Positions 4,982 to 48,389 of a stretch of 52,740 bases of DNA are shown here, one piece after another. Source of the DNA: a virus. The notes beneath the pieces were generated by a model that worked only from the letters and a program-made list of their open reading frames with translations, did not search any database and was not told the origin of the DNA. Position numbers and translations under genes: made by a program. Location of the stretch: positions 1 to 52,740 of IMG/VR virus record IMGVR_UViG_3300042945_000786; one strand, written 5' to 3'. Positions within the stretch are counted from its first letter, which is position 1, and each line of letters opens with the position of its first letter.

Positions 4982-4988
4982 GGGCAAC

Positions 4989-5423
4989 ATGACACCAGAA
5001 CTCAAGGTCAGCCGGGCTATGACCCGGCTCGTCCTGCATCACCCCTTCTATGGTTCGCTCGCGATGGGCTCCGACGTTAGCCGCGACGACACCATGGGGA
5101 CAGCAGCAACGAATGGCGACTGGATCAAGTGGTCCGGTCCCTTCATCGACACCCTGACAGAGCCGAAGACCCTCGGCCTCATCGCGCACGAGGTTCTGCA
5201 CATCGCCCTGCGACATCATCTCCGCAAGGGCAACCGCAACCACGACAAGTGGAACATCGCCTGCGATGCGGCGATCAACAACATCCTGAAGGCGGATGGT
5301 TTCGAATTGCCGGATGGCGGCATCGATATGCCGCTGTTCGCGGAATACTCGGCAGAGAAAATCTACGATCTCCTGCCGGACGACATAGCCCCCCCCAGCA
5401 TGGGGCTTGGTGTTCGAGCCTGA
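4989..5423 (+). CDS. DUF2201 N-terminal putative metallopeptidase half (frameshifted)
   Basis: A 144-residue product carrying HEVLH at residues 67-71 followed by IALRHHLR, an HExxH zinc-binding motif as in the DUF2201_N (VWA-like metallopeptidase) family. It continues with NIACDAAINNIL and LPDGGIDMPLFAEYSAEKIY, also family-like. It ends just after a run of eight C at 5389-5396, whereas family members continue into a VWA-like domain that is encoded in the +1 frame from 5407. With seven C the two halves would read through as PPAWGLVFEPE. Such proteins normally work with a MoxR ATPase, whose remnant lies directly upstream. Confidence 0.65.
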   Translation: MTPELKVSRAMTRLVLHHPFYGSLAMGSDVSRDDTMGTAATNGDWIKWSGPFIDTLTEPKTLGLIAHEVLHIALRHHLRKGNRNHDKWNIACDAAINNILKADGFELPDGGIDMPLFAEYSAEKIYDLLPDDIAPPSMGLGVRA

Positions 5424-17483: not shown

Positions 17484-17501
17484 CATCTGAACTTTCAGAT
17501 G
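17484..17501 (-). terminator. Hairpin at the end of the late operon
   Basis: CATCTGA (17484-17490) and TCAGATG (17495-17501) form a 7-bp stem around ACTT; it includes the stop codon of the 2989-aa gene. Together with the hairpin at 17449 it separates two converging operons. Confidence 0.45.
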
Positions 17502-20500: not shown

Positions 20501-23500
20501 AGTCCATGTCCAATCAGGCATGAGGCCAGTCTTCTGATCCGCGAAGACAGTGTCCTCGACCTTGGCATTCCGGTTCGAATCGCCATAGGGTCCGTAGTTC
20601 AGCCAAGAGTTCTGGCCACGAGTTTCCGATGTGATTGCCCCAACGGCAGAGCCGGTGAAGAGGCGCACATGCGCCTGCCAAGCGTTCTCTTCGCCACGGG
20701 CGCGGAAGCCAGAGCCCTCTAGGCCGTGGCCGAATGCGTCGTGAACGGCACGGAAGAGGTCATTGGCGAGGACTGGCGCCGTCTGCTCGCTATCGGGTGA
20801 TCCAACCGGCCAGCGAAGACCGGTGTCCTCGAGCATGGGGTTGTCTTCGACATTCAGTTCGGTCGCGCCAGAGCCAAAGCCTCCCGCTGTTGGGAAGACG
20901 CCCATCTGCTTGTTCGCCCTGATATCGCGCAGTGCGTTCCAAGGGGATGACAGATATGCCTCGTTGTCAGGGCGAGACAGATCGGTGAACCAGAACTGGT
21001 AGCCATCCTGCGCCAGCGCATTGTACTGCGCCAATGTCTGGCGAATCAGGTTCTGGTATGCCTCCCTAACCTTGGGGTCTTGCGGCGCATGAGGCATGGC
21101 GTCGTACGCCGCAGCAATGCGCGCCGCTCGCTCGGGATCGACATCGACGTACTCTGACTGGCGGCTAAGATCGAGCCCGATGCTCTTGGCGTACTTGTCG
21201 GCGATGCGAACAAGACTTGGGTCAGGACCAGTGAAGCCCTCGACGCGGGGCGCTCCGGGCAGCGGCTCTAGCGGCGAGAGAGCAACTGCTCGTTCTGGTG
21301 CTGCCAGCGTGCGAGCCTCAGTTTCCCGAGTTCCAAGTCCTCCGACTCCTCGTCCGGGGACGGCTGAATATCGATCCGCTTCGCGACCTCCGGTAATTCT
21401 TCTCTGGCGCGGACGTATTCCTCCACCGGCAGCGCCTGCCCCTCGTCCAATTCCCTCAACTCTATCGGCATATCCGACAGAAGCTCCGCTTGCTCGTCTG
21501 CCGACGGATCGGTCGAGGCGTACGCCAGCCAGTTCTCCCTCGTAAGAGGAAGGCGCAATTTTACCAGCAGCCCCACCACCGGGTCCAAACCAAGTAGGCT
21601 CATTGATACCTCCCATGAACCGTTCAACATCGTCCCGCGCGGATTCGACGGAACGCTTCCCCTCGTTAACCTCACGCCAGATGCCATTAACTCTGGCAAC
21701 CTTCGCCTTGCTGCGCTTCTCCTCAGCAGGGAAGAGACCGCGCACAGCCTCCCAAGTGATCGACTGAAGTTCACGCGCCGTGATCCCAAGCGACCCAGCC
21801 GTCCTCCTGTAAGCCTCAGCGTATATACCATAGACACCGATAGCGCCAGTGTCTCCAATGCTCTTTGCTGCAATCCAGCCTTGCGGCTGCTTAGCCTTCG
21901 CCGGGCTGGACCCAAAGTTATGATGAACTTCTGCGCTGCTCCCAGATAGCGGGCGGATCAGTGCTGCGGCAACAGCGTGGGTATCGATGGTGACATCGCC
22001 ATGGGGCGCATCAGGGGCGAGGATGTTGTTGAAGAAGTTCCTGACCTTGTGCTGGTCGCCCATCGCAAGGCTCGTGGCCTCACGGCTCTGGTGCGTCAGG
22101 ACATAGATGGCCTTGGCGATTTCAACATTCGACCCCCAGCCAACCTTGCCTGACGGATCGCCGATGAAGTCACCCTCAGCGCTGACGGTGCGGTAGCCTC
22201 TCGGGTTGTAGGTCTCGTCGTATAGGCGAAGCCACATGGCCTTCAGGACCGGGTCTTCCAGACCGGCGTAACTGTTGGACATGACAATGCGGAGGGCGGG
22301 AGCGTATTGCTCCTTTCCGTAGATGCGCTGTGCCGTCTCGGCCATCTCCACGGTCGGCGTGAACGCGATCATGTTGCCGCGAGAGAAAGTCTGGTGGATG
22401 TCGATCAGGCGCTCCGCCAGAGAGACGTTCTGATACCAGTCCTTTTGAGGCGACAGAGCGGCGAGAACCCCAGCGACCGTAAAGTCTGGAATCTGGTACT
22501 GACCAGACATCCGCTCGGCGATCTTGCGAGCGCCGTTGTACCACAACTTGGACCGCTTCCTGATCTCTTGAGGCACGCGGTTGTGGAGCCACAGCAGGTT
22601 GTCGGAGACAAACTGGATGAAGTCTTCTGCGATCTGGTCAGGGTCTTCAGATGCCGTCACGAACCCCGGATAGCCCTTGATGACCTGCATGTTGTGAGCA
22701 AAGGCCTGCGGGCTCTGCTTCATCGCGTTCAGGTCGACGATCAGGTTCTGCGTCAGCGGGTCTTCGGTCGCCCTCTTGGTGTAGGGCTGCCGAGTAGAGA
22801 TGCGATCTTCAGTATCGCCAGACGCCATGATCCGAGTAATGGCTTGGCCCTCGGCCCAGTCATTGAAGTCAGCGACCTTTTCGCGGTCATACACGCCGTC
22901 TGTCTTGAACGCCCCCTCAGATGCAAGCACCATCGAGAACCGACGATACGGCTTCGGCCCGCGCTCGTAGACGCGCGTCTCTGACGGGTAGAAACTGTGG
23001 ACATAGTGGAACGGGTCTGGCGTCAGCCTGTTGTTCTCGGACAGGACGAGACGTAGACGCGGTGCCTTGAGCGGGCGGTTGTCGATCCACTCGAGCGCGA
23101 ACTGATCACCGTCCTTGCCGCCGATGACGGAGTCGCCGTTCCTCATCCCCTGCTGCTTCCAGACCTGAAGCATGTCGAAGATGGCCTTGTTGACGTCCTT
23201 GTACTTGGACATCTCGTAGAGTTCTTGGTCGTGCTTGCGGGCAATGATGTGCTTCAGCCCGTACCCGGTATCGACACCACGCTCACGGAAGATGTGCTCG
23301 CCGACAGGCAGGATGACCGACTGCTTCCTGCCACGGTAGTCAATGATATTGCCGTAGGAGTAGGAGTCAGTGCCGTCCCTGTTCTTCACGGGAGACGGCA
23401 CAGGCATGAACGACTTGCGTTCGCGGGGGTCAGCCGCGATTGCGACGGCAAGGTCGTCAAGTTGCCGGTTCAGGTCGGCCAGTTCTTCGGGGGACAACTG

Positions 23501-26464
23501 GTCATCGACAGAGACATCAGCCTCTGCCGTCGGGACTGCGGCGGGAGCGGCGGCTTGAGCGGCAGGAGCGGCGCCACGCGGCCTTGCTCCGATCTCACCG
23601 TAGCGGATGCCCTCGAAAATCTTCTCGACCGAGTCGAAGCCACGCTCGGTGTGTACCCCGATGATGGCCTTGAAGAAGTTCTTGAGGCGCTCGAAGATCG
23701 TCTTCTGCGGTCCTTTGACCGTGGTCTTGCCATCAAGGTAGTCGCGGAAGAGTTCTGCGACAGCCTCCTCCTGAATGACCGCCTCATCGTACCCCATGGC
23801 ACGGGCGCGCTCTTCATAGGTGTAGCTGCGCTCGACAGGTTTGCCCTGCTTGATCGCGACGTACTTCTTGTTCTTGGCGTAGGCGGTGAGTGTGTTCCAC
23901 TCTGCGTCAGTGATGACACCCATCAGGCGAAGGGCGTGGATCACCTCGTGGTTCATGACGCTGGCGATGGAGTCGAACAACTCCTGATCGGTCATGCCCT
24001 TGCGATAGATACCCATCGACAGGCTGATGATCCGCTTGACAGGATCGTACTTGCCCTCGGCAACACCCATGACCTTGCCAGACTGGTCGCGGGCCAGCAT
24101 GGCCTGAGCGCCCTCAAGGCGAACCTCCTTGAGGCCGAGGTTGTTGAGCCGCTTGCGCAGGGCTGCAAACACATTCTGCTGCTGTGCCGTGAAGATCGGT
24201 GTGTAGTTCACCGGCTCCTTCATCGTGGCAGCATTGAAGCGGGCCTGACCTGCGGCCTCACGCTCCTTTGCGGCCTGCACCGTGGCGGAGGGGTCGCGGA
24301 GTCGTGCCGTGGCTGTGTCGCGCAGTTTCTTCAGATCGGCTGCTGTCTGCTCCAGTTGCTGAAGCCGTGCCTTCTGAGCATTGTTCAGTTGAACTTTTTT
24401 CTGCCGCTTGCGGAGATTAGCAGCCTGTTTCTCCGCATCACCGATCTGCTGGTTATAGCCAGCGATATTCTGCCGCAGCGTCTCCATCCGCTGCTGGATG
24501 GCTGGTGCCGTCGCTTCGGTGACAGGCACAGCCACCTTGGCAGCATCCAGCGCCACACGCTCTACGGACGGGATGGCGCCAGCCTGCTTCGCGTTCTTGA
24601 TCTCGGTCTCAGCCGCAGCGACGCGAGCCTTCGCTGCCTCGATTGAGGCATCAAGGGTGTCGAGCTTCTGGTTGAACAGGGCGGGATCGGCCCTCTTCCC
24701 GGTCGAGTCCTTGCCGGTCTGCTCTACGCGGCGGACTTCCTCGATGAGGTTCTTCCGCTCCTTCTGCGACAGATCGATCTGCTTGTTCAGCCCGTCGATC
24801 TCCTGACGCAGGCCGGTCTCGATGCTATCGGTGCGGGCGATGGGCTCGAGACTGTAGCCAGTGCGAGACTTCGTGTCAGCGCGTATCACGCCGCGAGACA
24901 CCATCTCGTCGCGGATGTCGCGGACCACCGTGTTGGGAACCTTCGCCTTGGTGATGTCCCTCACAGCCTTCTGAATCTTGGGGAAACTGACGCCCTTGTC
25001 AGCCTTCACCTGTTGCACCGCGCGGTCGTACTGCTCTTGGGTGAAGGTCTTGTTCTCCACCGGGCCGAAACGAGCAATGCCGCCAGTGACGGGCTTCTGC
25101 TTCTTCGCCTCGCGCTCGGAAGCGGCAGTGCCGACGATGGCTTGCAGTTCCTCTAGCGTGACTTGAGGGAACGGTTCCTGACCGGCGTTGGCACGCGCCT
25201 GAGAGATGGCAACGCGCTCTTCCATGGGGAGACTTGTGAGGGCCACAGGGCGGGTAGGTGTGATAGCCTCCATACCCGCACGACCACGCAGCGCTGTCTC
25301 TTCCTGAGGCGTCGTACGGGCCGTGGATGGAGCGGGTAGGGCAAGAGGCGCAGCCTCCGGGGATGCGACCTTTTCAGCGGCTTCTGCTGCCCGGCTCTCT
25401 CGTGCGTTCTGGATGTACTGGTCGCCGCGAGCGCCCAGTTCCTCCATGTCCTCGTCGAGTTCTCGCTTTTTACGCTCCGCTTCTTCCTTGCGGCCAGTGA
25501 CAAGAGCGCCGCCCGCAGCGCCGATACCGCCACCAAGGACGGCGGCTCCGAGTGCAGCCTCGCCATAGCGTTGAATTGCCTCCTCGCTGAGAGGGTCTTT
25601 GCCAGCCTGAAGAATGCCGAGCAGTTCCTGACCAAGTTCAGTCGGCACCTCAGTGACAACGCCACCCGCAGCACCTCGCGCGGCACGGGTGAAGAGACCG
25701 CCCTCAGCGGCCTTCTTCAGGACGTTTGCGCCATACTTGGCTCCGACAGCAGACAGGACACCGTCGAGCAGAGATGCCGGTGCAGCGGCAAGGGCAGCAG
25801 CGCCTTCGCTCACCTCAACGGGGCGACCCGCCTCGATGTCAGCCTCCTTCTGCTGCTCGCGGAAGTCGCCATAGAAGTACGGTAGAGACGCGAGGGCAGC
25901 ACCACCGAGGGCACCAACCGTCCCGCCGACAACGGCGCCTACCGGCCCACCGAAAGCGCCAATTGCAGCACCGGCCTTTGCGCCAGCGTAGCCACCAGCA
26001 AGTGCGACGGCGGTCTGCGGCGCAGAACCACCAGCAATTTCGCCAACGTAGCTTGCGGCACTGCCGATTGCGCCCTGAGCCTCGCGCTCCTTCTCGAGGG
26101 CGGCAGCCTCAGCCAGACGATCAAGCTCAAGACCCTGACGCTCCGCGATACCAGCGCCGTATCCAGCAAGGCTCTCGAGCCCAGTGACGGTGCCGATGCC
26201 CTCCAGAGCGGAGCCGTATGCTCGGCCTAGCCCGGCTAGCCCTACGTCGATGCCGCGACCGAATGCGGTGGTGTCTTCAGGGGGAGCGGCTTCAGTCGCG
26301 ACCGGAGCCCCGAACATCGACTCATACCGCGACTGGAACGCAGACTCTTGCTGCGCCACATACTGATCGATCCGGGCTTGCTCTGCTGGGGTCGGTACGT
26401 CCCCCGCGATGTTGACAGCATACTGCGTGCCGCTGAAGGCACCGGGGACGTATATGACGGCCAT
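17495..26464 (-). CDS. Giant polyvalent internal virion (ejection) protein, 2989 aa
   Basis: The largest gene, last in the late operon. Regions by residue: 1-330 Ala/Gly-rich helical with membrane-active-looking segments (GYAGAKAGAAIGAFGGPVGA); 550-730 coiled coils; 755-940 a zinc-protease-like domain with HEVIH at 839-843 and EEAVAELFRDYLDG after it; 1020-1180 a segment with VDTGYGLKHIIARKHDQELY resembling PBECR (Barnase/EndoU/ColicinE5/RelE-like) phage nucleases; 1280-1620 a helical domain with AGVLAALSPQKDWYQN; 1750-1990 a domain with NDLFRAVHDAFGHG; 2310-2800 an LPD38-like region with NPAFFITNMFRD. Large polyvalent proteins are thought to be injected with the DNA. GGAG lies eight bases before the ATG. 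Confidence 0.8.
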   Translation of the reverse strand: MAVIYVPGAFSGTQYAVNIAGDVPTPAEQARIDQYVAQQESAFQSRYESMFGAPVATEAAPPEDTTAFGRGIDVGLAGLGRAYGSALEGIGTVTGLESLAGYGAGIAERQGLELDRLAEAAALEKEREAQGAIGSAASYVGEIAGGSAPQTAVALAGGYAGAKAGAAIGAFGGPVGAVVGGTVGALGGAALASLPYFYGDFREQQKEADIEAGRPVEVSEGAAALAAAPASLLDGVLSAVGAKYGANVLKKAAEGGLFTRAARGAAGGVVTEVPTELGQELLGILQAGKDPLSEEAIQRYGEAALGAAVLGGGIGAAGGALVTGRKEEAERKKRELDEDMEELGARGDQYIQNARESRAAEAAEKVASPEAAPLALPAPSTARTTPQEETALRGRAGMEAITPTRPVALTSLPMEERVAISQARANAGQEPFPQVTLEELQAIVGTAASEREAKKQKPVTGGIARFGPVENKTFTQEQYDRAVQQVKADKGVSFPKIQKAVRDITKAKVPNTVVRDIRDEMVSRGVIRADTKSRTGYSLEPIARTDSIETGLRQEIDGLNKQIDLSQKERKNLIEEVRRVEQTGKDSTGKRADPALFNQKLDTLDASIEAAKARVAAAETEIKNAKQAGAIPSVERVALDAAKVAVPVTEATAPAIQQRMETLRQNIAGYNQQIGDAEKQAANLRKRQKKVQLNNAQKARLQQLEQTAADLKKLRDTATARLRDPSATVQAAKEREAAGQARFNAATMKEPVNYTPIFTAQQQNVFAALRKRLNNLGLKEVRLEGAQAMLARDQSGKVMGVAEGKYDPVKRIISLSMGIYRKGMTDQELFDSIASVMNHEVIHALRLMGVITDAEWNTLTAYAKNKKYVAIKQGKPVERSYTYEERARAMGYDEAVIQEEAVAELFRDYLDGKTTVKGPQKTIFERLKNFFKAIIGVHTERGFDSVEKIFEGIRYGEIGARPRGAAPAAQAAAPAAVPTAEADVSVDDQLSPEELADLNRQLDDLAVAIAADPRERKSFMPVPSPVKNRDGTDSYSYGNIIDYRGRKQSVILPVGEHIFRERGVDTGYGLKHIIARKHDQELYEMSKYKDVNKAIFDMLQVWKQQGMRNGDSVIGGKDGDQFALEWIDNRPLKAPRLRLVLSENNRLTPDPFHYVHSFYPSETRVYERGPKPYRRFSMVLASEGAFKTDGVYDREKVADFNDWAEGQAITRIMASGDTEDRISTRQPYTKRATEDPLTQNLIVDLNAMKQSPQAFAHNMQVIKGYPGFVTASEDPDQIAEDFIQFVSDNLLWLHNRVPQEIRKRSKLWYNGARKIAERMSGQYQIPDFTVAGVLAALSPQKDWYQNVSLAERLIDIHQTFSRGNMIAFTPTVEMAETAQRIYGKEQYAPALRIVMSNSYAGLEDPVLKAMWLRLYDETYNPRGYRTVSAEGDFIGDPSGKVGWGSNVEIAKAIYVLTHQSREATSLAMGDQHKVRNFFNNILAPDAPHGDVTIDTHAVAAALIRPLSGSSAEVHHNFGSSPAKAKQPQGWIAAKSIGDTGAIGVYGIYAEAYRRTAGSLGITARELQSITWEAVRGLFPAEEKRSKAKVARVNGIWREVNEGKRSVESARDDVERFMGGINEPTWFGPGGGAAGKIAPSSYEGELAGVRLDRSVGRRASGASVGYADRVEGIGRGAGAAGGGIRPRQRRITGGREADRYSAVPGRGVGGLGTRETEARTLAAPERAVALSPLEPLPGAPRVEGFTGPDPSLVRIADKYAKSIGLDLSRQSEYVDVDPERAARIAAAYDAMPHAPQDPKVREAYQNLIRQTLAQYNALAQDGYQFWFTDLSRPDNEAYLSSPWNALRDIRANKQMGVFPTAGGFGSGATELNVEDNPMLEDTGLRWPVGSPDSEQTAPVLANDLFRAVHDAFGHGLEGSGFRARGEENAWQAHVRLFTGSAVGAITSETRGQNSWLNYGPYGDSNRNAKVEDTVFADQKTGLMPDWTWTEGRAGDMPAQEPTSAPSPTPLVRQSMVPTRNSVAGKVQRQTAQKQTNVVYSKAADLLAKGLRITGIGADDARSKQIADGIIKKFQDGMIPVGRMIDELRANGLNITDAMDTYMQEELYHGVVGEKVEQAQTNLYRPLIDLVGSLKVTDQAKQQLIAASNSASVGRGFADVAFNDTRSNALSMADIFLYASHAKERNEYIRGIDPENDAGSGMTDGEADAILAWFASSPYASTMQKIADATQRIVQSTNDVRLEGGLIPREFFQYTDPTTGDTVDVPQYDNYVPLRGKRDPSGEPVDEQATGPYRSPMYGARRREDRRSLGRYDYADNIIPNLLVQNQNAIIRAERNKVGQSFLQLLRSDPAKTKGYGRILKPGDMKDVQKRVLVERKRADGTVVQTVQTVLDPNFRNEPDIFVVKEDGKEVIVKLESDAIASALKGSMSPTHNNGLIRALATINRYLASINTSLNPAFFITNMFRDLQTAGVNVAQYEIDGLTRKIVRDVPGALRGIKQSIRNNDNSSEWARIYRDFVKNGGQNATNQVNTVADQMNNISGIIGDIADSGARKQFNRVKNGFVGKGAMSLLSFVEDYNTVIENGIRVTTYKALLDKGFTPQRAAQAARNITVNFAKGGDYKTFMNAMYLFYNASLQGSFAMLNAALRSKKVQKFWAAAIGVGIMQDYLNAIMSGDDEDGEKLYDKIPEYVLEHNLILPDVFGFTDRSYISIPMPYGLNMAHNLGRAMGRLSRGAYEPSEAAGSIVGTMLDTVNPIGGSESFANAASPTVLDPFIDIWQNENFANQPVYKEGFPGDRTPSSQLYWSTTSVPAVWLANAMNSVTGGTTEVKGMVDVSPDLIDFWFEYLTGGVGRFVIRTAETPFRAYDEGFSEDVVRNVPIFGKIIGTVTTREDTGAYVEKRNRVLTALDEVKAAVEEGNTERLADARERFSDELKVSGAVRAIDNALRKLSRQMRQVREGRLPEDQKRLILERLDERRQQLTARANQLMRDI

Positions 26465-38205: not shown

Positions 38206-39372
38206 TCACGCTGCCATATCTACCCAAGGTGACGTAGGAGTCGGATCGACGTCGGTCCAGACGGACGCTGTCCCGTTCGCAGTATCGGTATAGACCGAGT
38301 TCTGGTTCGGAACGACATCGACCCAAGGACCAGCGACCCCCGGAGTGACGGGAGTATAGACTGAGTTCTGATTCGGAACAATATCAGTCCACGAGATGCG
38401 GACAGTCCCGACAGACATTGCTGCGCTGACGCCGGTAACGAAGACCTGCGCGCTACCAGAGACGGTAACGGAGCCGACCTGAGTCGATCCAGATACGCCG
38501 AATACACTGACATCTGCGCCAGCCTCTGCCTCAACGGAGCCGACAAGGCCGTTGGCGGCAACACCGAGCAAGAAGACATTGGCGTCACCGATGGCATCTG
38601 CATTACCGATGGCGCCGCTGGCCTGAACGCCGACGACGAAGACATCAATGCCGGTTACCGCCTCGGCAACGCCGATCTGGGCTGTGCCCTCAACGCCGGT
38701 GAGTTGAACGTTGGCGTCCCCGGTGACCGCCACAGAGCCAATCTGGCCTATGGAGGAGACCTCGGTTACAAAGACGTCGCTACCGGACTCTGCGTCTACC
38801 GTGCCGACCAGCGCGCTGGCCTGAACACCGATGACGAAGACGGTGGCGCCAGCCTCTGCTGTGGCGTTTCCGACGAAGCCCGTAGCCTCGAGGCCGGTGA
38901 CGTTGACGTTCGCATCGCCAGTGACATCTGCGTTGCCAATGACGCCGGTCGCCTCGACGCCAGACGGGAAGACGTTCGCATCACCGATGACCTGAACGGA
39001 GCCAACGAATCCATTGGCCTCGACGCCAGTGACAGGGACAATCGCCCCCGCCTCTGCGGTCGCATTGCCGACAAAGCCACTCGCCTGATTGCCTGTGACG
39101 TTGACGTTGGCGTCGCCGGTAACCGCGACAGAGCCGACTTGACCGGTGCTCGGCGGGGTCTGGACATCCACCCCAGCGCCAGCCTCTGCCTGCACAGTGC
39201 CGACGAAAAGGTTAACAGCAACCCCTGTTACGTTAACTATGGCACCGGCTTCTGCCGTGGCATTGCCGACCAGAGCAGTGGCTTCTACGCCGGTAACGAG
39301 GACGTTGACGCTAGGTATCTCGGCGGCGTCATCCGCGAGAGGCGCACCCGTTAGTGGGAAGAAGCCAAGCAT
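38206..39372 (-). CDS. Ala/Val/Gly repeat structural protein, 388 aa
   Basis: It is almost entirely tandem repeats of about 23-26 residues with the consensus GxVxVTGDANVNVTGVEATG, alternating with AEAGA-type units, roughly a dozen copies. This gives a regular beta structure such as a beta-solenoid or elongated fibre. The C-terminus differs and holds a duplicated VVPNQNSVYT/IVPNQNSVYT module. Similar repetitive proteins occur among marine phage fibre genes. It follows the bilin reductase gene directly, 28 bases after its stop. Confidence 0.68.
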   Translation of the reverse strand: MLGFFPLTGAPLADDAAEIPSVNVLVTGVEATALVGNATAEAGAIVNVTGVAVNLFVGTVQAEAGAGVDVQTPPSTGQVGSVAVTGDANVNVTGNQASGFVGNATAEAGAIVPVTGVEANGFVGSVQVIGDANVFPSGVEATGVIGNADVTGDANVNVTGLEATGFVGNATAEAGATVFVIGVQASALVGTVDAESGSDVFVTEVSSIGQIGSVAVTGDANVQLTGVEGTAQIGVAEAVTGIDVFVVGVQASGAIGNADAIGDANVFLLGVAANGLVGSVEAEAGADVSVFGVSGSTQVGSVTVSGSAQVFVTGVSAAMSVGTVRISWTDIVPNQNSVYTPVTPGVAGPWVDVVPNQNSVYTDTANGTASVWTDVDPTPTSPWVDMAA

Positions 39373-39400: not shown

Positions 39401-40060
39401 CTATGCTAGCACAAGCTCTGGGAAAAGGCACTCCTCGATGAACCGAGACACCTCTTCGGGGTCTAGGCCCAGTGCCGCCATCACCTTGGGCGTGTGTGGG
39501 TTCTGCTTCTGGTAGTGGCAGTAGCGGTTGTGCCGATCAGAGTAGTCGGCGCTGGACTTCTCGCCAACAGAGGCGAGGTAGTGCCGCAGGTTGTTGATCA
39601 CCAGCGTCAGAAGGCGGGTGAGTTCGGCCTCTGTCTGGATGTTGCCTGCGGCGATCATGTGCTCGCTGAATATGGCCTTGGCCCAGTCAGGTAGCTCTCT
39701 GGTCTTACTCCACTCGTAGAACGAGGCGCGATTGGCGAAGGTCTCGAGAAGGTGGTGCTTGGACACCACCGGGCTGAAGTCATGGAATGCGCCCGTGACC
39801 TTGTTCGGCCCCGCGATGATGTCGAATCCTAAGATCGGGGACGGGTCGTTGACATGCGGCATCACCGTCAGGTGGAGCATGTAGAGCTTCTTGGTGTCTC
39901 TCGCGTCCACGATATCGAGGTGGGCTCGGCGGAAGTTCTTTCCCGTGAAGACGTAGTTCGGCCACGAGAAGCGGTGGCCCTCGTCCACCTCTTGGTACCG
40001 GCTGAACTCCTTGAGGATGTCGTGGTGAGCGGCCTCAAGCGATTCGAAGATTGTGGGCAT
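39401..40060 (-). CDS. pcyX: Ferredoxin-dependent bilin reductase, PcyA/PcyX type
   Basis: It reduces biliverdin IX-alpha with electrons from ferredoxin to a phycobilin. PcyA-family motifs are present: NFRRAHLDIVDA, LYMLHLTVMP, PILGFDIIAGPNKVTGAFHD with FSPV, and YSDRHNRYCHYQKQNPHTPK with FIEECLFPEL. Aligned by eye to Synechocystis PcyA, Asp80 equals catalytic Asp105 and His63 equals His88 (both 17 apart), while Asp49 replaces Glu76, which PcyA uses in the 18-vinyl reduction. Loss of that Glu fits the viral PcyX enzymes, which make phycoerythrobilin rather than phycocyanobilin. At 219 residues it is a little short. It overlaps the heme oxygenase gene by 26 bases, inside the late fibre region. 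Confidence 0.88.
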   Translation of the reverse strand: MPTIFESLEAAHHDILKEFSRYQEVDEGHRFSWPNYVFTGKNFRRAHLDIVDARDTKKLYMLHLTVMPHVNDPSPILGFDIIAGPNKVTGAFHDFSPVVSKHHLLETFANRASFYEWSKTRELPDWAKAIFSEHMIAAGNIQTEAELTRLLTLVINNLRHYLASVGEKSSADYSDRHNRYCHYQKQNPHTPKVMAALGLDPEEVSRFIEECLFPELVLA

Positions 40061-40571
40061 CGGCTACCTCATCGAACAGTGCGATGGCAAAGTCGAACAC
40101 CTTGTTGGCCTCTTCCGCAAGGTCGTCTGTCAGCCTCTCTCGGACTTTGGCTATGAGAGCGGAGCGGTCGTTGAAGTGGTACATGCGGCAGGTGCCGGGG
40201 GCCACGCGCTTGATCAGTTGCCCGCCATAGAGATCGGCGAAGTGTCTGCCGTAGATGTGAGCCCACAACAAGTTCGATGGAACTTCTTTGACGTAGGAGA
40301 CGTAGCGCTGCGTGGACGGTGAGAGTGCCGGGCCGTAGTGGTCGCCCAGTAGCTCCTTGGCATCAAGCTCGATGAGTTCTGCCCTGCGAAGGCCCGGCAG
40401 GTCTGCCATGTGCTCCTGTGCCACAGCCTCGAGAGCGCGGTAGCAGGCTGCCTGATTGACGAGGTAGGTGGCGTAGACCTCTGGCCGCATCTCGCCAGAC
40501 AGAAGTGACACAACGAAGCAGTGCTTCTCTGCCTCGTTGTGCTTGTCTCTTACTGCTTCACGCAGGGTCAT
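40035..40571 (-). CDS. hemO: Heme oxygenase, biliverdin-forming
   Basis: It opens heme to biliverdin IX-alpha, iron and CO. The N-terminus LREAVRDKHNEAEKHCFVVS matches the cyanobacterial HO1 start, with His11 as the proximal heme ligand. YATYLVNQAACYRALE, GDHYGP and WAHIYGRHFADLYGGQLIKR follow; the last is the distal helix with the flexible Gly pair (116-117) over the heme. At 178 residues it is shorter than cyanobacterial HO1 (about 240), as in other phage versions. The start abuts the upstream stop, and the stop lies within the bilin reductase gene, so the two are coupled and form a pathway. Confidence 0.9.
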   Translation of the reverse strand: MTLREAVRDKHNEAEKHCFVVSLLSGEMRPEVYATYLVNQAACYRALEAVAQEHMADLPGLRRAELIELDAKELLGDHYGPALSPSTQRYVSYVKEVPSNLLWAHIYGRHFADLYGGQLIKRVAPGTCRMYHFNDRSALIAKVRERLTDDLAEEANKVFDFAIALFDEVADAHNLRIA

Positions 40572-40916
40572 TCAGAGGCTTGCGGCTTCCAAGAAGAGGG
40601 CGTCGATGTCAGCCTCTTCGTAGCCAATGCCGCTCATGATAGTCAGGAACCAAGCCGCCTCACGCTCCACAACCGTGTTGTAGTCCCACTCGGTCTGGAC
40701 CTTGGCCTTCTCCGTGGCATCAGGGATGGCCTTGATGGCGTCTGTGACTGCGGTCACCTTCTTGCGGTCGATAACCGCCAGACGCATCTGGCGCATGGAC
40801 ACAGACACAGGCTTCGGCTGGGTGAGGGATGCCATGGCGCTGAGGTGCGCTTCGTGCTCCTCTTCTGTCATCTCACGGACTGTTCCGTTGACGTAGATGC
40901 TGGGACGCTCTGTCAT
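40572..40916 (-). CDS. Fibre-associated small protein (chaperone-like), 114 aa
   Basis: The segment SVSMRQMRLAVIDRKKVTAV, TDAIKAIPDATEKAKVQTEW, DYNTVVEREAAW is seen in small phage proteins encoded after fibre genes (XkdW/tail-assembly-like). The N-terminus IYVNGTVREMTEEEHEAHLS is an acidic helix. It immediately precedes heme oxygenase on the transcript and overlaps the fibre-like gene upstream by four bases. Confidence 0.65.
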   Translation of the reverse strand: MTERPSIYVNGTVREMTEEEHEAHLSAMASLTQPKPVSVSMRQMRLAVIDRKKVTAVTDAIKAIPDATEKAKVQTEWDYNTVVEREAAWFLTIMSGIGYEEADIDALFLEAASL

Positions 40917-41584
40917 GATATGGCATACCCGTAGATTTCACAGTTCAGGCCAACACCTACACGAGCGGTGGAATAGCGCGCAGCAGTAAAACTGGGATTA
41001 CCGGTAGTTCCAAGCGTCACACCCGGATATGATCCAGTCTCAATGGTTGAGAGGAATTCGCTCGTGACGGTATAGCTAGCGGTCGTCGTAATGATTGATC
41101 CTGTGGGGAGAGTTGTGCTGTTCCCAAGGCGGATATCGCAATCAAAACCGGTTGGGGTCATCAGGACGTCCCACCTGTTTACCCAGACGTTAGCGGCGAC
41201 AAGACCGCCAGATGTTACTGTTATAGTTGGGCTAGCATTGTTGTTTACCCAGCCAGTGGTCGTGGTGGCGGTGATCTGATTGATCTGATACCAGGTATTA
41301 CCCGGCACGGTTAGGCCCTCTCTGCGCGGGGTGACTGTAAGGTCGGACGCTGCGGAGGCAAAACCGATCCCAGAGAACCTGAACAGGATAGCCCTGTACT
41401 TCCTGAAGTCGGCATCACGAGGCGCATCAACCGTGATGGTGGTTATAGATGGGGGGTTGACGACGTTAGGAGCAATGATGTTGGCGCTCTTGATGAGAAC
41501 AAGCCCCGGCACTGGCCCAGAGGGAGAGGGGCCAATGGCGGATAGCTCAGACGCCAGAGAGAGCCTTGCCGAGGCAAACCCCAT
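40913..41584 (-). CDS. Hypothetical virion protein, 223 aa
   Basis: A strand-rich protein without recognised family: FRKYRAILFRFSGIGFASAA, TWYQINQITATTTTGWVNNN, VNRWDVLMTPTGFDCDIRLG. The ATG at 41582-41584 is chosen since GGAGGTGTGAT precedes it, directly after the stop of the 922-aa gene. The composition is that of a fibre or decoration protein. Confidence 0.65.
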   Translation of the reverse strand: MGFASARLSLASELSAIGPSPSGPVPGLVLIKSANIIAPNVVNPPSITTITVDAPRDADFRKYRAILFRFSGIGFASAASDLTVTPRREGLTVPGNTWYQINQITATTTTGWVNNNASPTITVTSGGLVAANVWVNRWDVLMTPTGFDCDIRLGNSTTLPTGSIITTTASYTVTSEFLSTIETGSYPGVTLGTTGNPSFTAARYSTARVGVGLNCEIYGYAIS

Positions 41585-41585
41585 A

Positions 41586-44354
41586 TCACACCTCCTCAAC
41601 CACAGTCAGCATTGCTGACAGGGAACCCGCGAGCGTCGAACTGAGTTTGACCGAGTAGTTGTTCGGGATCAGGTACACGTCGGTGTTGCGGTAGGAACTA
41701 GCCTTCGACGTGTCGATGGTCTGCCCGTTGACAGGCAGAACGTAGAAGTCGTTGCCGCCACCACTAACCGTAACGACAAGATTCGAAGTATCAGGACCGC
41801 TCACAGTATAGCGAGAGTTGACGCCAGTACCGAAGACCTCAAGTTGAGCGCCGTTCGGCCTGTCGAGGGTCGTCCAGCCATTCCCGCTTGTGGCCGTGAG
41901 GGTGTAGCGCGGACCAACAGCGGGATTGATGGCATCGAAGACATAGGCAATCTGTGCCACAGCAGATGTGTTGGTGCTGCACGGAGACACCACAAACGCA
42001 TACTTGCTGGCGATGCTGTTCATGAACTGCATCGTGTTGGCGCCAGAAATCAGCAGACCGGTCAAGGTTCCGAACAGGCGACCGCCGATCACGAAGTAGT
42101 AGCGACCAGCAGAACGGTTATTGTCGTACATAGACACGGACTGCGTCCGAACCGACTGGGACTTCACGGCGGAGTAGACGTTGGCAACTGTACTGTTAAG
42201 CGTAGTGCCCACGGCAATACTTGTGATATTGCCGTCGGAAACAGAGGTTGTAGAGATTGCTTGATACGCCATGTTCAATGCGCTGTTTGCACCGACAGCG
42301 CCGACACAACGCCACAGTCCTGTCGGGTAGAACGTATTTGCAGGCGTGTCCTGCATCAGGACGAAGTTTGGGCGGGCTCCAAAGTGGAAGCTAGAGTTCA
42401 GAGCGGTTGTGTTTATGCTTGTATTGCCAGCGGCGCTCCAAGAACCTCCGTCAAATCTGGCGGCGGCAATGTTTGCGTTGGTCGATGCGTTGACAAACAG
42501 AGCGAGAGCGCGCTCAAGACCAGATGCGTCCGTGTACGACGTCAAGTCCACTGCGACGTGGTAGCTAACGGCCGTAGCCGAAAGCAGCAGGGCACCGGCA
42601 AGGTCAGTCGGCTGGGACACCACATCAATGGCAAGGCCATAGGAGTTGCCACCGACGCTAGCCCAGTACATCCCGTAATAGCTCGCGCCAGTCCCCATCG
42701 AGTCGGTGATGAAAAAGACCTTGCCTGATGGCGCCACATCGACAGACTTGATAGAGTAAAGGAAGGTGTTTGACCCAAGCCCCGGCACCAGATCGTAGAT
42801 GCCAATCTCACTGAGAACAACACCATCATTGCTGAGAGCATAGAGCTTTCCGCCCTGAGCCATGAACCAGCACTGAGCCTTGTGTGACCAAGCGCAACCC
42901 TGACCATAGTTGTGGCCGTAGGGGAGGTAGTTGCCGTAAAGATTTGACACGCCAACAGAGATGGAGGTGTCCATGCCGGTGCGAGCTATGAACTGTGATA
43001 GCTTACCGACAGTGACGCCGCCGTCATCGTGATATGTGTAGAGTGGGCGCGAGTTGAACGGATACCAAAGCGGTAGCGTGACAGTGGTGGTGGTTGCGTC
43101 TGTCGCAGTAACAAGGGGGGTTGCCGTTCCAGCGTTGTCGAAGACGACAATCGCATTGATGGTACCAACGAAGACAGCCCTGTCTGTACCCCAGTTGAAC
43201 GATGTCCTGAGAGACCTCGAGGCAGAACTTGACGGAAGGGTAGCAGTGGTCACGGAGTTCTGAGCCTGCGTCAGGTTCGTCTGGCGAAGGAACCGAAACT
43301 GCTGGGCATTTCCAGTGTCAAAGAAACAAACAACGGCATTCGCCGTGCCATCCGTTGAAAGTGGGCGAGCGGCAACGCCGAGTGTGTTGCTGTTGGTAAC
43401 CGTTACAGCCGACCCCACGGCTGCGAAGGTCGTCGTCGCAGAATCATAGGAAAAGTTCTGCACCGACAGCGTTACGCCAGTGCTGGTATTTGCTGCAACA
43501 ACGTAGGTAGTCGTTGTGCCAACGGCAGTGCCGTTGAGGGGGGCGATTGCAAAGTGGAACGTGGTGTGCGCAAGCGCGGTATTGAACAGCGTAGAGGCGA
43601 CCGTAATGGCTCCGCTGTCAGGAACGTTGAGCGATTGCAGGGACCAGTTGGTACCATTCGAGCCACCAACAACAATCTGCGTCGTGCTCCCGCGAACAAG
43701 TGCAAGATCGAACGCGAATGCGGTGGTGCTATTGAACGACGTGGCGCCAGCAAGGTCAAAGTTGACAACGTTCGCCTGATCAAGTGAGTTGCCGCTGATG
43801 TTGAGGCGAAGGAGCTTGAAGAAGGTGGACGAGCGGTAGGCAATCACAACCTTGGTGGTGGTGACGGCAAGGCCTTTTAGAAGGGACTGACCGGTACCGC
43901 CCATGCCACCCGGCGTTGTCCATACACCAGTCGTCTGTGAATTGAAGACGGCATCAGGCAGAAGCAGGTTGACGATGGGTCCAGCGCGGTACTTCGTGCC
44001 AGTGTACTCAACGATCTGGGTGTGCAGAACCGTACCGCCAAGGTAGTCGTTGCCTCCACCGGCGTGCATGTTCGCCGGGGTCCAGATGAGAAGGACGCGA
44101 TCAGCAGAGAGTTGAATGGAGAATGGATGCGTGTTGCCAGCAGTGGCGGGGTTGGGCCCGGCAAACGTGACAAGCGGACTGCCGAAGTACATCCACTCAT
44201 CAGCGGTCCCGGTGTCCACCGTCCAGACGTTGGGATCGCCAATCCCAGTCGCGTTCACGGCTTTTAGTGTCGCAGAGGCGCCAGTGGTGTTGGTGTACGC
44301 CGATGTAAGGGTCGTGCCTACAGTCGGGACAATGACGGACTTGACGGTTGTCAT
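41586..44354 (-). CDS. Large beta-rich virion protein, 922 aa
   Basis: Thr/Ser/Val/Asn/Gly-rich with many short strands, no coiled coil and no membrane segment. WTVDTGTADEWMYFGSPLVT, FSIQLSADRVLLIWTPANMH and GYGQGCAWSHKAQCWFMAQG are typical segments. The sensor-like pattern of repeated values and text-like strands suggests a beta-propeller or stacked beta domains of a receptor-binding fibre. I cannot assign a family. It lies between the CBM-containing fibre and the 223-aa protein; MTTVKS/MTTVID starts are shared with the upstream fibre, hinting at a common attachment peptide. Confidence 0.6.
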   Translation of the reverse strand: MTTVKSVIVPTVGTTLTSAYTNTTGASATLKAVNATGIGDPNVWTVDTGTADEWMYFGSPLVTFAGPNPATAGNTHPFSIQLSADRVLLIWTPANMHAGGGNDYLGGTVLHTQIVEYTGTKYRAGPIVNLLLPDAVFNSQTTGVWTTPGGMGGTGQSLLKGLAVTTTKVVIAYRSSTFFKLLRLNISGNSLDQANVVNFDLAGATSFNSTTAFAFDLALVRGSTTQIVVGGSNGTNWSLQSLNVPDSGAITVASTLFNTALAHTTFHFAIAPLNGTAVGTTTTYVVAANTSTGVTLSVQNFSYDSATTTFAAVGSAVTVTNSNTLGVAARPLSTDGTANAVVCFFDTGNAQQFRFLRQTNLTQAQNSVTTATLPSSSASRSLRTSFNWGTDRAVFVGTINAIVVFDNAGTATPLVTATDATTTTVTLPLWYPFNSRPLYTYHDDGGVTVGKLSQFIARTGMDTSISVGVSNLYGNYLPYGHNYGQGCAWSHKAQCWFMAQGGKLYALSNDGVVLSEIGIYDLVPGLGSNTFLYSIKSVDVAPSGKVFFITDSMGTGASYYGMYWASVGGNSYGLAIDVVSQPTDLAGALLLSATAVSYHVAVDLTSYTDASGLERALALFVNASTNANIAAARFDGGSWSAAGNTSINTTALNSSFHFGARPNFVLMQDTPANTFYPTGLWRCVGAVGANSALNMAYQAISTTSVSDGNITSIAVGTTLNSTVANVYSAVKSQSVRTQSVSMYDNNRSAGRYYFVIGGRLFGTLTGLLISGANTMQFMNSIASKYAFVVSPCSTNTSAVAQIAYVFDAINPAVGPRYTLTATSGNGWTTLDRPNGAQLEVFGTGVNSRYTVSGPDTSNLVVTVSGGGNDFYVLPVNGQTIDTSKASSYRNTDVYLIPNNYSVKLSSTLAGSLSAMLTVVEEV

Positions 44355-44365
44355 CTTGTAGCTCC

Positions 44366-47008
44366 TTACATCGCTAGGTCGATATACTGCCGGAATGTGT
44401 ACTTATTGTCCACATAGGTCTTGACGGCAAACTCTGTGGGGACTGCGGAGTTCGAGTTTCCGCCCAGCGTCGGGTCAGATGAGAACTCGTTGATGGTCTC
44501 TCCAAGTTGCGCGCCGATAGAGCCGAGGCGCAGCGAGGTGAGACCGGAGAGGTTGAAGGCGTTTGCGTTCAGCGTGGCTGTACCGGTGGCCTGATCGACC
44601 CGGAAGTATTCACCGACACGGAAGTTGCCGTCTTGGTCAGTCGAGACGTAGTAGACACGACCCGGAAGGTCTTCGTTGACCTCATTGCCCTGAGCGGCAG
44701 GCTGAGTCGGCGCGTTCGGGTAGTTGGTGGTAGTAACGCCACCAGTGCCGATGCTCAGGAAGTCATGACCGGTCAGACGAACTTGGCTGTAGTTGTAGCG
44801 GATCGTCAAGGCTGCGTTGTCAGGCGAGCCGGTCAGTTTCTCCTGAGCGAGGGCAATCGCCAGAACGCTCGAGGAGTTGACGTAGGTGCCGCTCACGGAC
44901 TGGATGACGTAGGCCCCAGTATCGCCAGCAATCTGGATGCTCGCACCCGGAAGAGGAGCCGAAGAGAAGCCATCCGCAACGAGCAGGAAGCCCTTCTGCT
45001 GCGACACACCAGCGGGCGCGATGGTCAGCGTGTTCGTGCCGTCGCTGATGACTTCGTTGTTCTGGAACGGAGTGCCGGGCGAGGTGCTGATGTAGTAGAT
45101 TTTCCCAGCGGAAGACTGGAGGTTCGTGACCGTACCGGTGGCTCCAGAGGTCTGGCCGGTGATGGTGCTGCCAGCAGCAAAACCCACAGTGATGGGATCG
45201 GTGGTGACGGTCAGTTGCTCGCCATGCAGAGAGCCAGTATGCGGCGTCTCAGAGGCAAGGAAACCAAATGAGGTAGAACCCCAAGTTCCGTAGGAGTTGT
45301 TGCCGTTCAGTGAGCGGATGATGCCGCCACCAGAAGCGGCGTAGCCGAAGTAGGCATAGTAGGTGAAAACGGAGACGACCTCAGTCCGGGCGCCATCCTT
45401 GGCCCAGATGCCGACGCCATTGTCCATGATGCAGGTATAGTTGCTGAACACGACCGACTTATAGCCGGATGCGTGGACGCTTCCGTCGATCAGTGCGCCG
45501 ATTGCACCAGACCCGAAGGCGGAGCACTCGATGACATAGGGCGACTTCGTCGTGATCGGCGATGCCGAGTTCAGAGCAACATAGATACCCTTGGGCGTAG
45601 ACGTCGTGATGTTTCCGGGGGTAGAACCCGGAACCCATCCAGTCATTCCACTGAACGACATCTTGTGAAGAAGCGATGCGTTCGAGAGGCGCCACATCGT
45701 GGCTTGGTTGTTCGGTGTTATTCCATCAGCCGCCAAGCCAGCGGCGGGCGTGACGAAGGTATTCCGCAGGCTGTCTCCAATGATCGACACACCGGGCGGA
45801 ACAACGATGGGAAGCAGCGCCTCCTGATAGGTGCCGTTCTTGACGTAGATAACAGCAGACTGACCGCCGGGGACAGCAGCAACAGCGTTCTGGATGTTGG
45901 CGAAGGCAAAGCCAATCGTCTTGCCGGTGTTCGCGTTGTTGCCAGTCGGGGTGACGTAGAAGACGTTCGTGGATGCCGTGGTGGGAGACCAGATGACCGA
46001 TGTCCCAGCCGCGTCTACCGTCAGAGCAGAGCCTGCATCCCCGATTCCATAGGACGGGATGACTGCGTCACCTGCCATGAACTGCCACTTGCCAGCCGCG
46101 AGGTCCGTGGAGAAGGTGCCAGAGGTGTGATCGACCAAGCAGATGTAGGAGGAACCAGCGTTCCTGACGATGTCATTGACGAGATAGACGTACGCGGTGA
46201 CCCAAGCACCCGCCCAGCGCACGCCGCTGTTGAAAATCTGCCACTTACCAGCGGCCAGATCGGTGGCAAAGGTTCCAGACGTGTGCCCGACCTGACATGT
46301 GTAGGCGTTGGCGCCGTACTGAACGATGTCGTTCAGATAGTAGACTGTGGCCGTTGCCCAAGCATTGCGGTTCTGGAACGCGGAGACGAACAGGGACCAG
46401 TAGGTCGCATTTGTCGGAAGGTTGCCGGTGGTGTTAGCAATGCAGAGGTACAGGTTCGCGCCGTACGAGACGATATCGTTGGGCTGATACGCAGTCGCGT
46501 TGTTGTACGCACCCTCGGGCGAGATGCCGGTGACGAACTGATCCCAGTAGGTGGCGTTGGTGGGGTCATTGCCGACTGTGGTCTGCTTGGCAATGAATGT
46601 GCTTCCACCGTACTTGACAACGTCATTCGCCTGATAGGTCGTTCCAGCGCTATAGTTGCCTTCCCACTGGATGCCCTCAACGAACTGAGACCAGTCTGCC
46701 GGGAAGAGGTCGGGCTGTTTGTTGAGGTTGTCGGTCAGGGCAATGTAGACAGTCGAACCATAGGCCACGGCATCGCCAATGCGATACTGCGTGGCAGCGC
46801 TCCACGTCCCAAGGAAGTTCAGGCCCTCAACCATCAGCGCCCAGTAGGTGGCGTTTGTCGGTGCGTTCCCGGTCGTTTTTACGACGTTGATGTAGACATA
46901 GGCGTTACCGCCGTACTTCACCACGTCGTTGAGTTCATACTCAGTCGCGGCGCTGTAGTTGCCAGCCCAGTAGAACCGCAGTTTGCCGAGATCAATGACA
47001 GTAGTCAT
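44366..47008 (-). CDS. Tail fibre with six carbohydrate-binding-like modules and a beta-helix, 880 aa
   Basis: Residues 10-320 hold six copies of an approximately 45-residue module: WSAATQYRIGDAVAYGSTVY, WEGNYSAGTTYQANDVVKYG, YNNATAYQPNDIVSYGANLY and others, each followed by NATYW or AAGKWQ. This resembles carbohydrate-binding module 5/12 (chitin-binding type) repeats. A right-handed beta-helix follows (ANIQNAVAAVPGGQSAVIYV, KNGTYQEALLPIVVPPGVSI). The C-terminal part (STDQDGNFRVGEYFRVDQAT) is shared by many marine phage fibres. Likely binds surface polysaccharide. Confidence 0.75.
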   Translation of the reverse strand: MTTVIDLGKLRFYWAGNYSAATEYELNDVVKYGGNAYVYINVVKTTGNAPTNATYWALMVEGLNFLGTWSAATQYRIGDAVAYGSTVYIALTDNLNKQPDLFPADWSQFVEGIQWEGNYSAGTTYQANDVVKYGGSTFIAKQTTVGNDPTNATYWDQFVTGISPEGAYNNATAYQPNDIVSYGANLYLCIANTTGNLPTNATYWSLFVSAFQNRNAWATATVYYLNDIVQYGANAYTCQVGHTSGTFATDLAAGKWQIFNSGVRWAGAWVTAYVYLVNDIVRNAGSSYICLVDHTSGTFSTDLAAGKWQFMAGDAVIPSYGIGDAGSALTVDAAGTSVIWSPTTASTNVFYVTPTGNNANTGKTIGFAFANIQNAVAAVPGGQSAVIYVKNGTYQEALLPIVVPPGVSIIGDSLRNTFVTPAAGLAADGITPNNQATMWRLSNASLLHKMSFSGMTGWVPGSTPGNITTSTPKGIYVALNSASPITTKSPYVIECSAFGSGAIGALIDGSVHASGYKSVVFSNYTCIMDNGVGIWAKDGARTEVVSVFTYYAYFGYAASGGGIIRSLNGNNSYGTWGSTSFGFLASETPHTGSLHGEQLTVTTDPITVGFAAGSTITGQTSGATGTVTNLQSSAGKIYYISTSPGTPFQNNEVISDGTNTLTIAPAGVSQQKGFLLVADGFSSAPLPGASIQIAGDTGAYVIQSVSGTYVNSSSVLAIALAQEKLTGSPDNAALTIRYNYSQVRLTGHDFLSIGTGGVTTTNYPNAPTQPAAQGNEVNEDLPGRVYYVSTDQDGNFRVGEYFRVDQATGTATLNANAFNLSGLTSLRLGSIGAQLGETINEFSSDPTLGGNSNSAVPTEFAVKTYVDNKYTFRQYIDLAM

Positions 47009-47238
47009 ACGAACACCATCTCCAGATGACCCTTATTGCCCCACCGGAACTGATAAGTGTCAGTTGACCAAACCCAGTTCACATACTCGTTCGGGCCAGT
47101 GATGTAGCCCGTCTGAGGCAGGCTGACCGTAGACCCATCGTTGATGACGTCCACATTGAGATCGCCCGTCGCTTGGATCAGTTTGAAACCGTAGAAGGTT
47201 TTGTCGGCCAGATCGGTGCCGGTATGAAACCCCGCCAT
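47005..47238 (-). CDS. Small virion protein, 77 aa
   Basis: A strand-rich small protein (GFHTGTDLADKTFYGFKLIQ, DGSTVSLPQTGYITGPNEYV, WVWSTDTYQFRWGNKG). It overlaps the fibre gene by four bases (ATGA) and the gene above by one base, and belongs to the set of small fibre or decoration proteins. Family not recognised. Confidence 0.62.
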   Translation of the reverse strand: MAGFHTGTDLADKTFYGFKLIQATGDLNVDVINDGSTVSLPQTGYITGPNEYVNWVWSTDTYQFRWGNKGHLEMVFV

Positions 47239-47930: not shown

Positions 47931-48389
47931 TCACGCGATGCGGATGATCGCGTTGCTGGCATCAGCCACCGGGAAGATGATGGTGAACGTGCCGGTCGTG
48001 GAAATCTTGGCGCCGCCAAAGTCGAGCACGCAGACCGATGGGTTGGTCAGAGGACCAGCGACACCGTTCGCCGAGGGCGTGGTGTTGTAGATGAGCGCGC
48101 CATATGCGGTGATCGTCGCGGAGGTGAACGACAGGTCGGCGAAGTCGCAGAACGCTGTCGTGCCAGACGTGGCGGGGTCACCATTCGTCAGCGCGCCACC
48201 ACCAGCAACATAGGTTCCCGTGTTGGGAACTTCGTTCGTCGCGGTGTAGGTAGTCGTCGCGGCTGTGAAGGAGGCGCTGTTGTCGTAGAGCGCCAACTTG
48301 AAGGTGTCTCCGCCATTGCGGAAGTCATGCACGGCAAGCAGAAGCTCCTGCTTGAAGGACGTGCACATGTAGTTCCCGGTGAACGCCAT
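47931..48389 (-). CDS. Virion protein, 152 aa
   Basis: A strand-rich protein: FTGNYMCTSFKQELLLAVHD, DTFKLALYDNSASFTAATTT, TAYGALIYNTTPSANG, ISTTGTFTIIFPVADASNAI. This family is frequent in cyanophage and pelagiphage structural regions. Its start overlaps the stop of the gene above by one base. Confidence 0.68.
   Translation of the reverse strand: MAFTGNYMCTSFKQELLLAVHDFRNGGDTFKLALYDNSASFTAATTTYTATNEVPNTGTYVAGGGALTNGDPATSGTTAFCDFADLSFTSATITAYGALIYNTTPSANGVAGPLTNPSVCVLDFGGAKISTTGTFTIIFPVADASNAIIRIA

What the first reader, a model, noticed from the sequence alone, without database searches (positions are those of the whole stretch)
39401..40571. Two-gene heme-to-phycobilin pathway inside a podovirus-like fibre operon
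Heme oxygenase and a PcyA/PcyX-type bilin reductase overlap by 26 bases and sit between virion fibre genes on the same strand, so they should be made late with the structural proteins. The reductase keeps the His and Asp matching PcyA His88 and Asp105 but has Asp where PcyA has Glu76, as expected for phycoerythrobilin-type PcyX enzymes (motif reading by eye). PcyX is known from viral metagenomes; host and purpose in a phage without visible photosynthesis genes remain open. Options include loading host phytochromes, iron or CO release from heme, or a pigment ligand of the virion.
Basis: partly seen in the sequence, partly recalled or inferred. Interest (0 to 1): 0.92.

Follow-up and report, generated by a model that had tools for sequence, protein, structure and literature searches.

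The report
Heme-to-bilin genes in a fibre island
An uncultured short-tailed phage carries the two enzymes that should turn heme into the pink pigment phycoerythrobilin; such gene pairs were already known in phages, but here they ride inside a swappable block of tail-fibre genes, which gives a handle on what a phage without photosynthesis genes uses them for.

Summary
Window 40035-40571 (-) encodes a heme oxygenase (HO) and 39401-40060 (-) a ferredoxin-dependent bilin reductase, overlapping by 26 bp inside a fibre-gene operon. By sequence, tree, fold and active-site residues (Asp49/His63/Asp80) the reductase is PcyX, so PEB is the predicted product. The hemO-pcyX phage cassette is already published (marine, freshwater, one cultured pelagiphage), so the pair itself is not new.

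What appears new is the setting. The cassette is the 3' end of an 8.5-kb island (p77, long fibre fib880, tips, gp114, HO, PcyX) between two conserved virion genes of a podovirus-like phage. In 21 of 38 backbone relatives that slot is empty; the others hold different modules, and sister phage L142 has a collagen-like fibre plus two 2OG-Fe(II) oxygenases. The cassette tracks fib880 (38 of 47 fibre loci) rather than the backbone (1 of 45 loci, the same species), in podovirus-like and T4-like phages. Fifty carrier records show no psbA/psbD, phycobiliprotein, CpeT lyase or ferredoxin. A light-harvesting role is unlikely; the bilin's target and the host remain unknown. Verdict: new variant of a known kind.

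The parts
40035..40571 (-). heme oxygenase (HemO), 178 aa; ATG directly abuts the TGA of gp114
   Evidence: Pfam PF01126 E=8.7e-18; AF2 model pLDDT 95.5, best PDB matches are HmuO and HO-1; His11, Asp113, Gly116, Gly117 invariant in 24 aligned phage HOs
39401..40060 (-). PcyX-type ferredoxin-dependent bilin reductase, 219 aa; overlaps HO by 26 bp
   Evidence: PF05996 E=9.6e-21; 5owg PcyX_EBK42635 E=3.4e-54; tree; AF2 pLDDT 93.1, 5owg rmsd 2.4 A
40572..40916 (-). gp114, small protein where other carriers have a tail-assembly chaperone; overlaps p228 by 4 bp
   Evidence: phrog_6034 E=2.3e-17, function unknown; in other carriers this place holds Phage_tail_APC proteins
40913..41599 (-). p228, probable distal fibre/tip protein
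   Evidence: position in the coupled operon; no family hit
41586..44354 (-). p922, probable distal fibre protein
   Evidence: position in the coupled operon; no family hit
44366..47008 (-). fib880, long tail fibre with CBM5/12 repeats and a weak pectinesterase-like stretch
   Evidence: phrog_9851 E=2.7e-212; CBM_5_12 E=4.4e-19; co-occurs with HO/PcyX in 38 of 47 loci
47005..47238 (-). p77, small gene at the upstream edge of the island, found next to fib880 in most fib880 loci
47931..48389 (-). p644, conserved virion-region gene, upstream flank of the island
   Evidence: phrog_644 E=1.6e-14; next to rep388 in empty-site relatives
38206..39372 (-). rep388, repeat protein, downstream flank of the island; core to the podovirus-like backbone
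   Evidence: present in most relatives without HO/PcyX
39401..47238 (-). fibre-bilin island inserted between p644 and rep388 (8.56 kb gap in the window)
   Evidence: gap below 500 bp in 21 of 38 non-carriers; 8.1-8.5 kb gap with fib880 and PcyX in carriers L003, L010, L018, L086

Best explanation
The pair is a working heme-to-phycoerythrobilin pathway carried as cargo of an exchangeable tail-fibre module. Shown: identity, active-site residues, purifying selection, tight gene coupling to the fibre genes, island borders and empty sites, and co-occurrence with one fibre type. Inferred: it is transcribed late with the fibre; HO opens host heme at the alpha-meso carbon to biliverdin IXalpha, Fe(II) and CO; PcyX, with host ferredoxin, reduces biliverdin by four electrons through 15,16-dihydrobiliverdin to PEB, which pulls the HO reaction forward. 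Inferred with less confidence (about 0.35): the benefit is in the infected host, where heme-iron release and/or a bilin for host bilin-binding proteins helps in the hosts that this fibre type recognises, so fibre and cassette are inherited together as one host-adaptation module.
For: Families, residues, folds. Tree: viral PcyX clade including the characterised enzyme, 99/99, apart from PcyA and PebS. Selection. Coupling: p922/p228/gp114/HO/PcyX junctions overlap by 14, 4, 0 and 26 bp. Island and empty sites; sister L142 at 84% backbone identity holds another module. Horizontal gain: window and L002 are nested in an otherwise non-carrier backbone clade. Fibre link: 38/47 fib880 loci against 1/45 backbone loci; fibre distance correlates with HO (r=0.54) and PcyX (r=0.48) distance, p=0.0005. 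No psbA/D, phycobiliprotein, CpeT or Fer2 match in 50 carrier records. A cultured relative infects the heterotroph Pelagibacter.
Against: No enzyme assay, no expression data and no identified host. The window HO has Ala112 where human HO-1 has Gly139 (read from the alignments), which could lower activity. The fibre query was built from carriers, so the 38/47 figure is inflated by ascertainment, and those loci were not dereplicated. 13 of 40 non-redundant PcyX loci have no fib880 homologue upstream. The role in the host is inference.
Confidence: 0.62

Rival explanations
1. Virion-directed: the products act on the fibre itself. PEB or released Fe(II) becomes a ligand or supports maturation of the fibre, as the neighbouring 2OG-Fe(II) oxygenases might.
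For: Tight linkage to one fibre type. The sister phage has two 2OG-Fe(II) oxygenases in the same slot after a collagen-like fibre. 2OG families are about 37 times denser in the 2.5 kb upstream of PcyX than elsewhere in the loci, and in L018, for example, one lies between HO and PcyX.
Against: Cys495 of fib880 is also present in most non-carriers. No bilin lyase or phycobiliprotein found. No HxH motif in the window's island fibre proteins p922, p228 and gp114. Tip proteins differ between carriers. The window itself has no 2OG oxygenase match. The 2OG profiles were built from neighbouring genes, which biases the density figure.
Confidence: 0.2
2. Light-harvesting cassette of a cyanophage that keeps host phycobilisomes supplied, like PebS or PcyA of T4-like cyanophages.
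For: Same chemistry as PebS. Some distant core-gene matches to records named as cyanophages.
Against: 0 of 50 carrier records with psbA/psbD, phycobiliprotein or CpeT. PcyX is a separate clade from cyanophage PcyA and PebS. The cultured carrier infects Pelagibacter. Carrier GC ranges from 33 to 59%.
Confidence: 0.06
3. Iron or heme management alone: HO frees iron late in infection and PcyX merely removes biliverdin, the bilin having no use of its own.
For: Frequent 2OG-Fe(II) oxygenase neighbours. An iron-supply role has been discussed for the known cassette (PMC11480375).
Against: A conserved four-electron PcyX active site in all 114 sequences is more than a sink needs. No other iron-related family was recognised in the window's Pfam scan.
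Confidence: 0.22
4. Pure hitch-hiking: fibre islands are hypervariable hotspots and the pair sits there without a functional link to the fibre.
For: The slot holds many alternative modules. Phage accessory genes often sit near fibres (general knowledge).
Against: The same fibre type and cassette recur together in podovirus-like and T4-like phages; fibre and enzyme distances correlate; strong purifying selection.
Confidence: 0.15

Closest known systems
viral hemO-pcyX cassette (PcyX_EBK42635, marine phage metagenomes; PDB 5owg)
   Same: Adjacent hemO and pcyX, same fold, same Asp/His/Asp active site, same viral clade
   Different: Here in a podovirus-like backbone within a fibre island bounded by p644 and rep388; the published valaS contigs cluster with myovirus pelagiphages by gp13 (PMC11480375)
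Pelagibacter phage Mosig EXVC030M (MT647606)
   Same: HO followed by bilin reductase, downstream of a related tail fibre and several 2OG-Fe(II) oxygenases
   Different: T4-like myovirus, 141 kb; reductase 47% identical; cassette lies before the neck genes
three-gene valaS-hemO-pcyA/X cassette, phage CB_2
   Same: Phage-borne heme catabolism outside cyanophages (PMC11480375)
   Different: AlaS is found in only 5 of 50 carrier records and in none of the window's podovirus-like subclade tested; the CB_2 enzyme lacks the PcyX Asp and makes PCB (PMC11480375)
PebS of Prochlorococcus phage P-SSM2 (2vck)
   Same: Phage-encoded single-enzyme PEB synthesis
   Different: Different FDBR branch, Asn in place of the His, cyanophage host

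Membership tests
FDBR superfamily (PF05996) | Fe_bilin_red profile and FDBR fold | tested here: met
   E=9.6e-21 above cut-off; Foldseek matches PcyA, PcyX, PebA, PebB, PebS and phytochromobilin synthase structures
PcyX | Branches with characterised PcyX, apart from PcyA and PebS | tested here: met
   Viral clade 99/99 containing PcyX_EBK42635; PcyA (99/90) and PebS (100/99) outside. Alphaproteobacterial PcyA and the CB_2 enzyme were not in the tree
PcyX | Asp in place of PcyA Glu76, with His88- and Asp105-equivalents | tested here: met
   D49, H63, D80 in 114 of 114. D49 aligns with chain residue 63 of 5owg; equating this with Asp55 of the literature assumes an 8-residue tag
PcyX | Converts biliverdin to PEB via 15,16-DHBV | not testable with these tools
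   needs an enzyme assay
heme oxygenase, HO-1/HmuO type (PF01126) | Profile match, all-helical HO fold, proximal His and distal Asp/Gly motif | tested here: met
   PF01126 E=8.7e-18; HO fold; H11, D113, G116, G117 invariant; the Gly139-equivalent is Ala112
heme oxygenase, HO-1/HmuO type (PF01126) | Heme to biliverdin activity | not testable with these tools
   needs an enzyme assay
photosynthesis-supporting cyanophage AMG | Photosystem or phycobiliprotein genes in the same phages; cyanobacterial host | tested here: not met
   0 of 50 carrier records for PF00124, PF00502, PF06206; the window's Pfam scan shows none; the host itself is unknown
podovirus | Short-tail adaptor, stabilization and ejection proteins; no sheath, tube or tape measure | tested here: inconclusive
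   SU10 adaptors, stabilization-protein homologue, ejection protein, LPD38 giant protein, but TerL, portal and capsid were not found in this contig

The most novel reading that the evidence does not exclude
HO and PcyX are part of tail-fibre manufacture: the slot after the fibre genes is a place for O2/Fe-dependent fibre-finishing enzymes (2OG oxygenases in some phages, HO-PcyX in others), and carriers build a virion whose fibre bears a bilin or HO-derived iron.
Probability: 0.15. Interest if true: 0.92.

Novelty: new variant of a known kind. Interest (0 to 1): 0.58.

Why it matters
Why phages of non-photosynthetic bacteria make phycobilins is an open question ('still enigmatic' in PMC11480375). 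That the pair moves with one fibre type, and is absent from sister phages whose slot is empty or holds 2OG oxygenases, turns it into testable questions: is the benefit tied to the host that the fibre recognises, or to the fibre itself? It also extends the cassette from T4-like phages to a podovirus-like lineage.

Tried and rejected
Carrier-specific Cys in the fibre as a bilin anchor: Cys495 is also in most non-carriers. Iron-binding HxH tips: none in the window's island proteins. Ferredoxin supplied by the phage: none in 50 records. AlaS as third partner: 5 of 50 records. rep388 as a cassette-specific partner: it is core to the backbone family, mostly without the cassette. Conserved ~216-aa proteins upstream of rep388 in relatives looked like 2OG oxygenases by length but are SU10 adaptors. 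Host by nucleotide similarity: no match in 50,697 phage records. Bacterial origin: the only genome contigs match is a MAG contig with a T4-like neck gene, probably phage, and PF05996 was found in no other of 399 Pseudomonadota genomes. Promoter and terminator scan: promoter-like sites no more than chance, terminator-like sites 22 against 13.2 expected; not used. The primary PcyX papers (2016, 2018) are not held.

Full report
Check of the observation. Both ORFs lie at the stated coordinates with a 26-bp overlap. Pfam assigns Fe_bilin_red (9.6e-21) and Heme_oxygenase (8.7e-18). The best solved sequence is PcyX_EBK42635 (5owg, 3.4e-54) against 1.9e-13 for Synechocystis PcyA. The AlphaFold models (pLDDT 93.1 and 95.5) match FDBR and HO structures; among the listed FDBR matches 5owg has the lowest rmsd, 2.4 A. 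Asp49, His63 and Asp80 (PcyA Glu76, His88, Asp105 positions) are invariant in 114 viral sequences. dN/dS against L002 and L003 is 0.045-0.18. The HO keeps the proximal His, distal Asp and Gly-Gly, but has Ala112 at human Gly139.

Phylogeny. An IQ-TREE of 126 rows puts all viral reductases, the characterised PcyX and the Mosig enzyme in one clade (99/99), apart from PcyA, PebS, PebA and PebB. The window lies in a 42-row subclade (96/91). At least 586 IMG/VR stretches encode relatives. One bacterial-genome contig matched, and it carries a T4-like neck gene. PF05996 was found in no other of 399 Pseudomonadota genomes. Alphaproteobacterial PcyA and the CB_2 phage enzyme are not in this tree.

Surroundings. 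The window is an IMG/VR record. It has SU10 adaptors, a stabilization-protein homologue, an ejection protein, an endolysin and a 2989-aa protein with LPD38. Terminase large subunit, portal and capsid were not found; since the small subunit lies near the left end, they probably lie beyond the contig ends (inference). Cultured relatives are distant (37% to DSL-LC04, 31-35% to roseophages and pelagiphages; no nucleotide match). The host is unknown.

The island. The genes p922, p228, gp114, HO and PcyX are joined by overlaps of 14, 4, 0 and 26 bp, so coupled late expression with the fibre is likely (inference). The flanks p644 and rep388 are conserved in backbone relatives. In the window they are 8.56 kb apart; in carriers L003, L010, L018 and L086 8.1-8.5 kb, with fib880 and PcyX between them. 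In 21 of 38 non-carriers the gap is under 500 bp; the other non-carriers hold other sequence. The sister phage L142 (84% in the stabilization protein) holds a collagen-like fibre and two 2OG-FeII_Oxy_3 proteins there. In the backbone tree, window and L002 are nested in an otherwise non-carrier clade, with at least two changes forced by supported branches; 0 of 27 related records have any PF05996. Horizontal gain is the simplest reading.

Fibre link. Among fib880-type loci with at least 6 kb downstream, 37 of 47 have HO and/or PcyX, and one more has the reductase about 11 kb downstream. Of 45 stabilization-protein loci with enough flank, only the same-species L130 has the cassette or fib880. 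Of 40 non-redundant PcyX loci with enough flank, 27 have fib880 upstream. Distances of fib880 correlate with HO (r=0.54) and PcyX (r=0.48), p=0.0005. Carriers include podovirus-like and T4-like phages. Caveats: the fibre query was seeded from carriers and the 47 loci are not dereplicated.

2OG oxygenases. Two families (PF13640, PF13759) lie in the 2.5 kb upstream of PcyX in 14 of 59 non-redundant loci, 0.166 per kb against 0.0045 per kb elsewhere. In L018, for example, one lies between HO and PcyX. Their profiles were built from neighbouring genes, so the contrast is an upper estimate. The window has none.

Function. Fifty carrier records have no psbA/psbD, phycobiliprotein, CpeT or Fer2 match; AlaS occurs in 5 of 50. 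Many of these records are fragments, so absence is not proof. Light-harvesting is unlikely. The two-enzyme chemistry is predicted with good confidence; the benefit is not known. I rank a host-directed role tied to fibre-defined hosts first, iron/heme management next, then a virion-directed role, then hitch-hiking.

Comparison with what is known. The hemO-pcyX cassette, its valaS extension and the freshwater CB_2 enzyme (a true PcyA, lacking the PcyX Asp) are published (PMC11480375). There the retrieved contigs clustered with myovirus pelagiphages, and a text search of that paper's main text finds neither 'fiber' nor '2OG'. The primary PcyX papers were not held, so novelty of the podovirus-like setting and of the fibre link is a judgement from the papers I could read.

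Noticed in passing
window 40035-40571: HO has Ala112 at the position of human HO-1 Gly139; several other carriers (L008, L024, L050) also have Ala there.
   Followed up: partly
L142:3718-6226: In a close relative the same slot holds a glycine-rich collagen-like 441-aa protein followed by two 2OG-Fe(II) oxygenases.
   Followed up: partly
window 17495-26464: A 2989-aa protein with LPD38 and DUF7178 domains, probably an internal/ejected polyvalent protein; its C-terminal part is about 30% identical to proteins of coliphages and a Ruegeria phage.
   Followed up: no
L085: The only bacterial-genome match to PcyX is a 14-kb contig of a Gammaproteobacteria MAG (MED685) that also has a T4-like neck gene and a 2OG oxygenase; probably a misbinned phage contig.
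   Followed up: partly
OQ594354, OL906435, PP438419 (phages collection): Phages recorded for Synechococcus, Planktothrix and Planktothricoides all have 65,014 bases and give identical match scores; they may be one genome under three host names.
   Followed up: no
record behind L108 (G437:C1:23070-24239): The AlaS homologue has one in-frame TGA: a broken gene, a sequencing error or a recoded stop.
   Followed up: no
window 4698-6084: A DUF2201_N/DUF2201 pair (metallopeptidase-like and VWA-like) in the early region.
   Followed up: no
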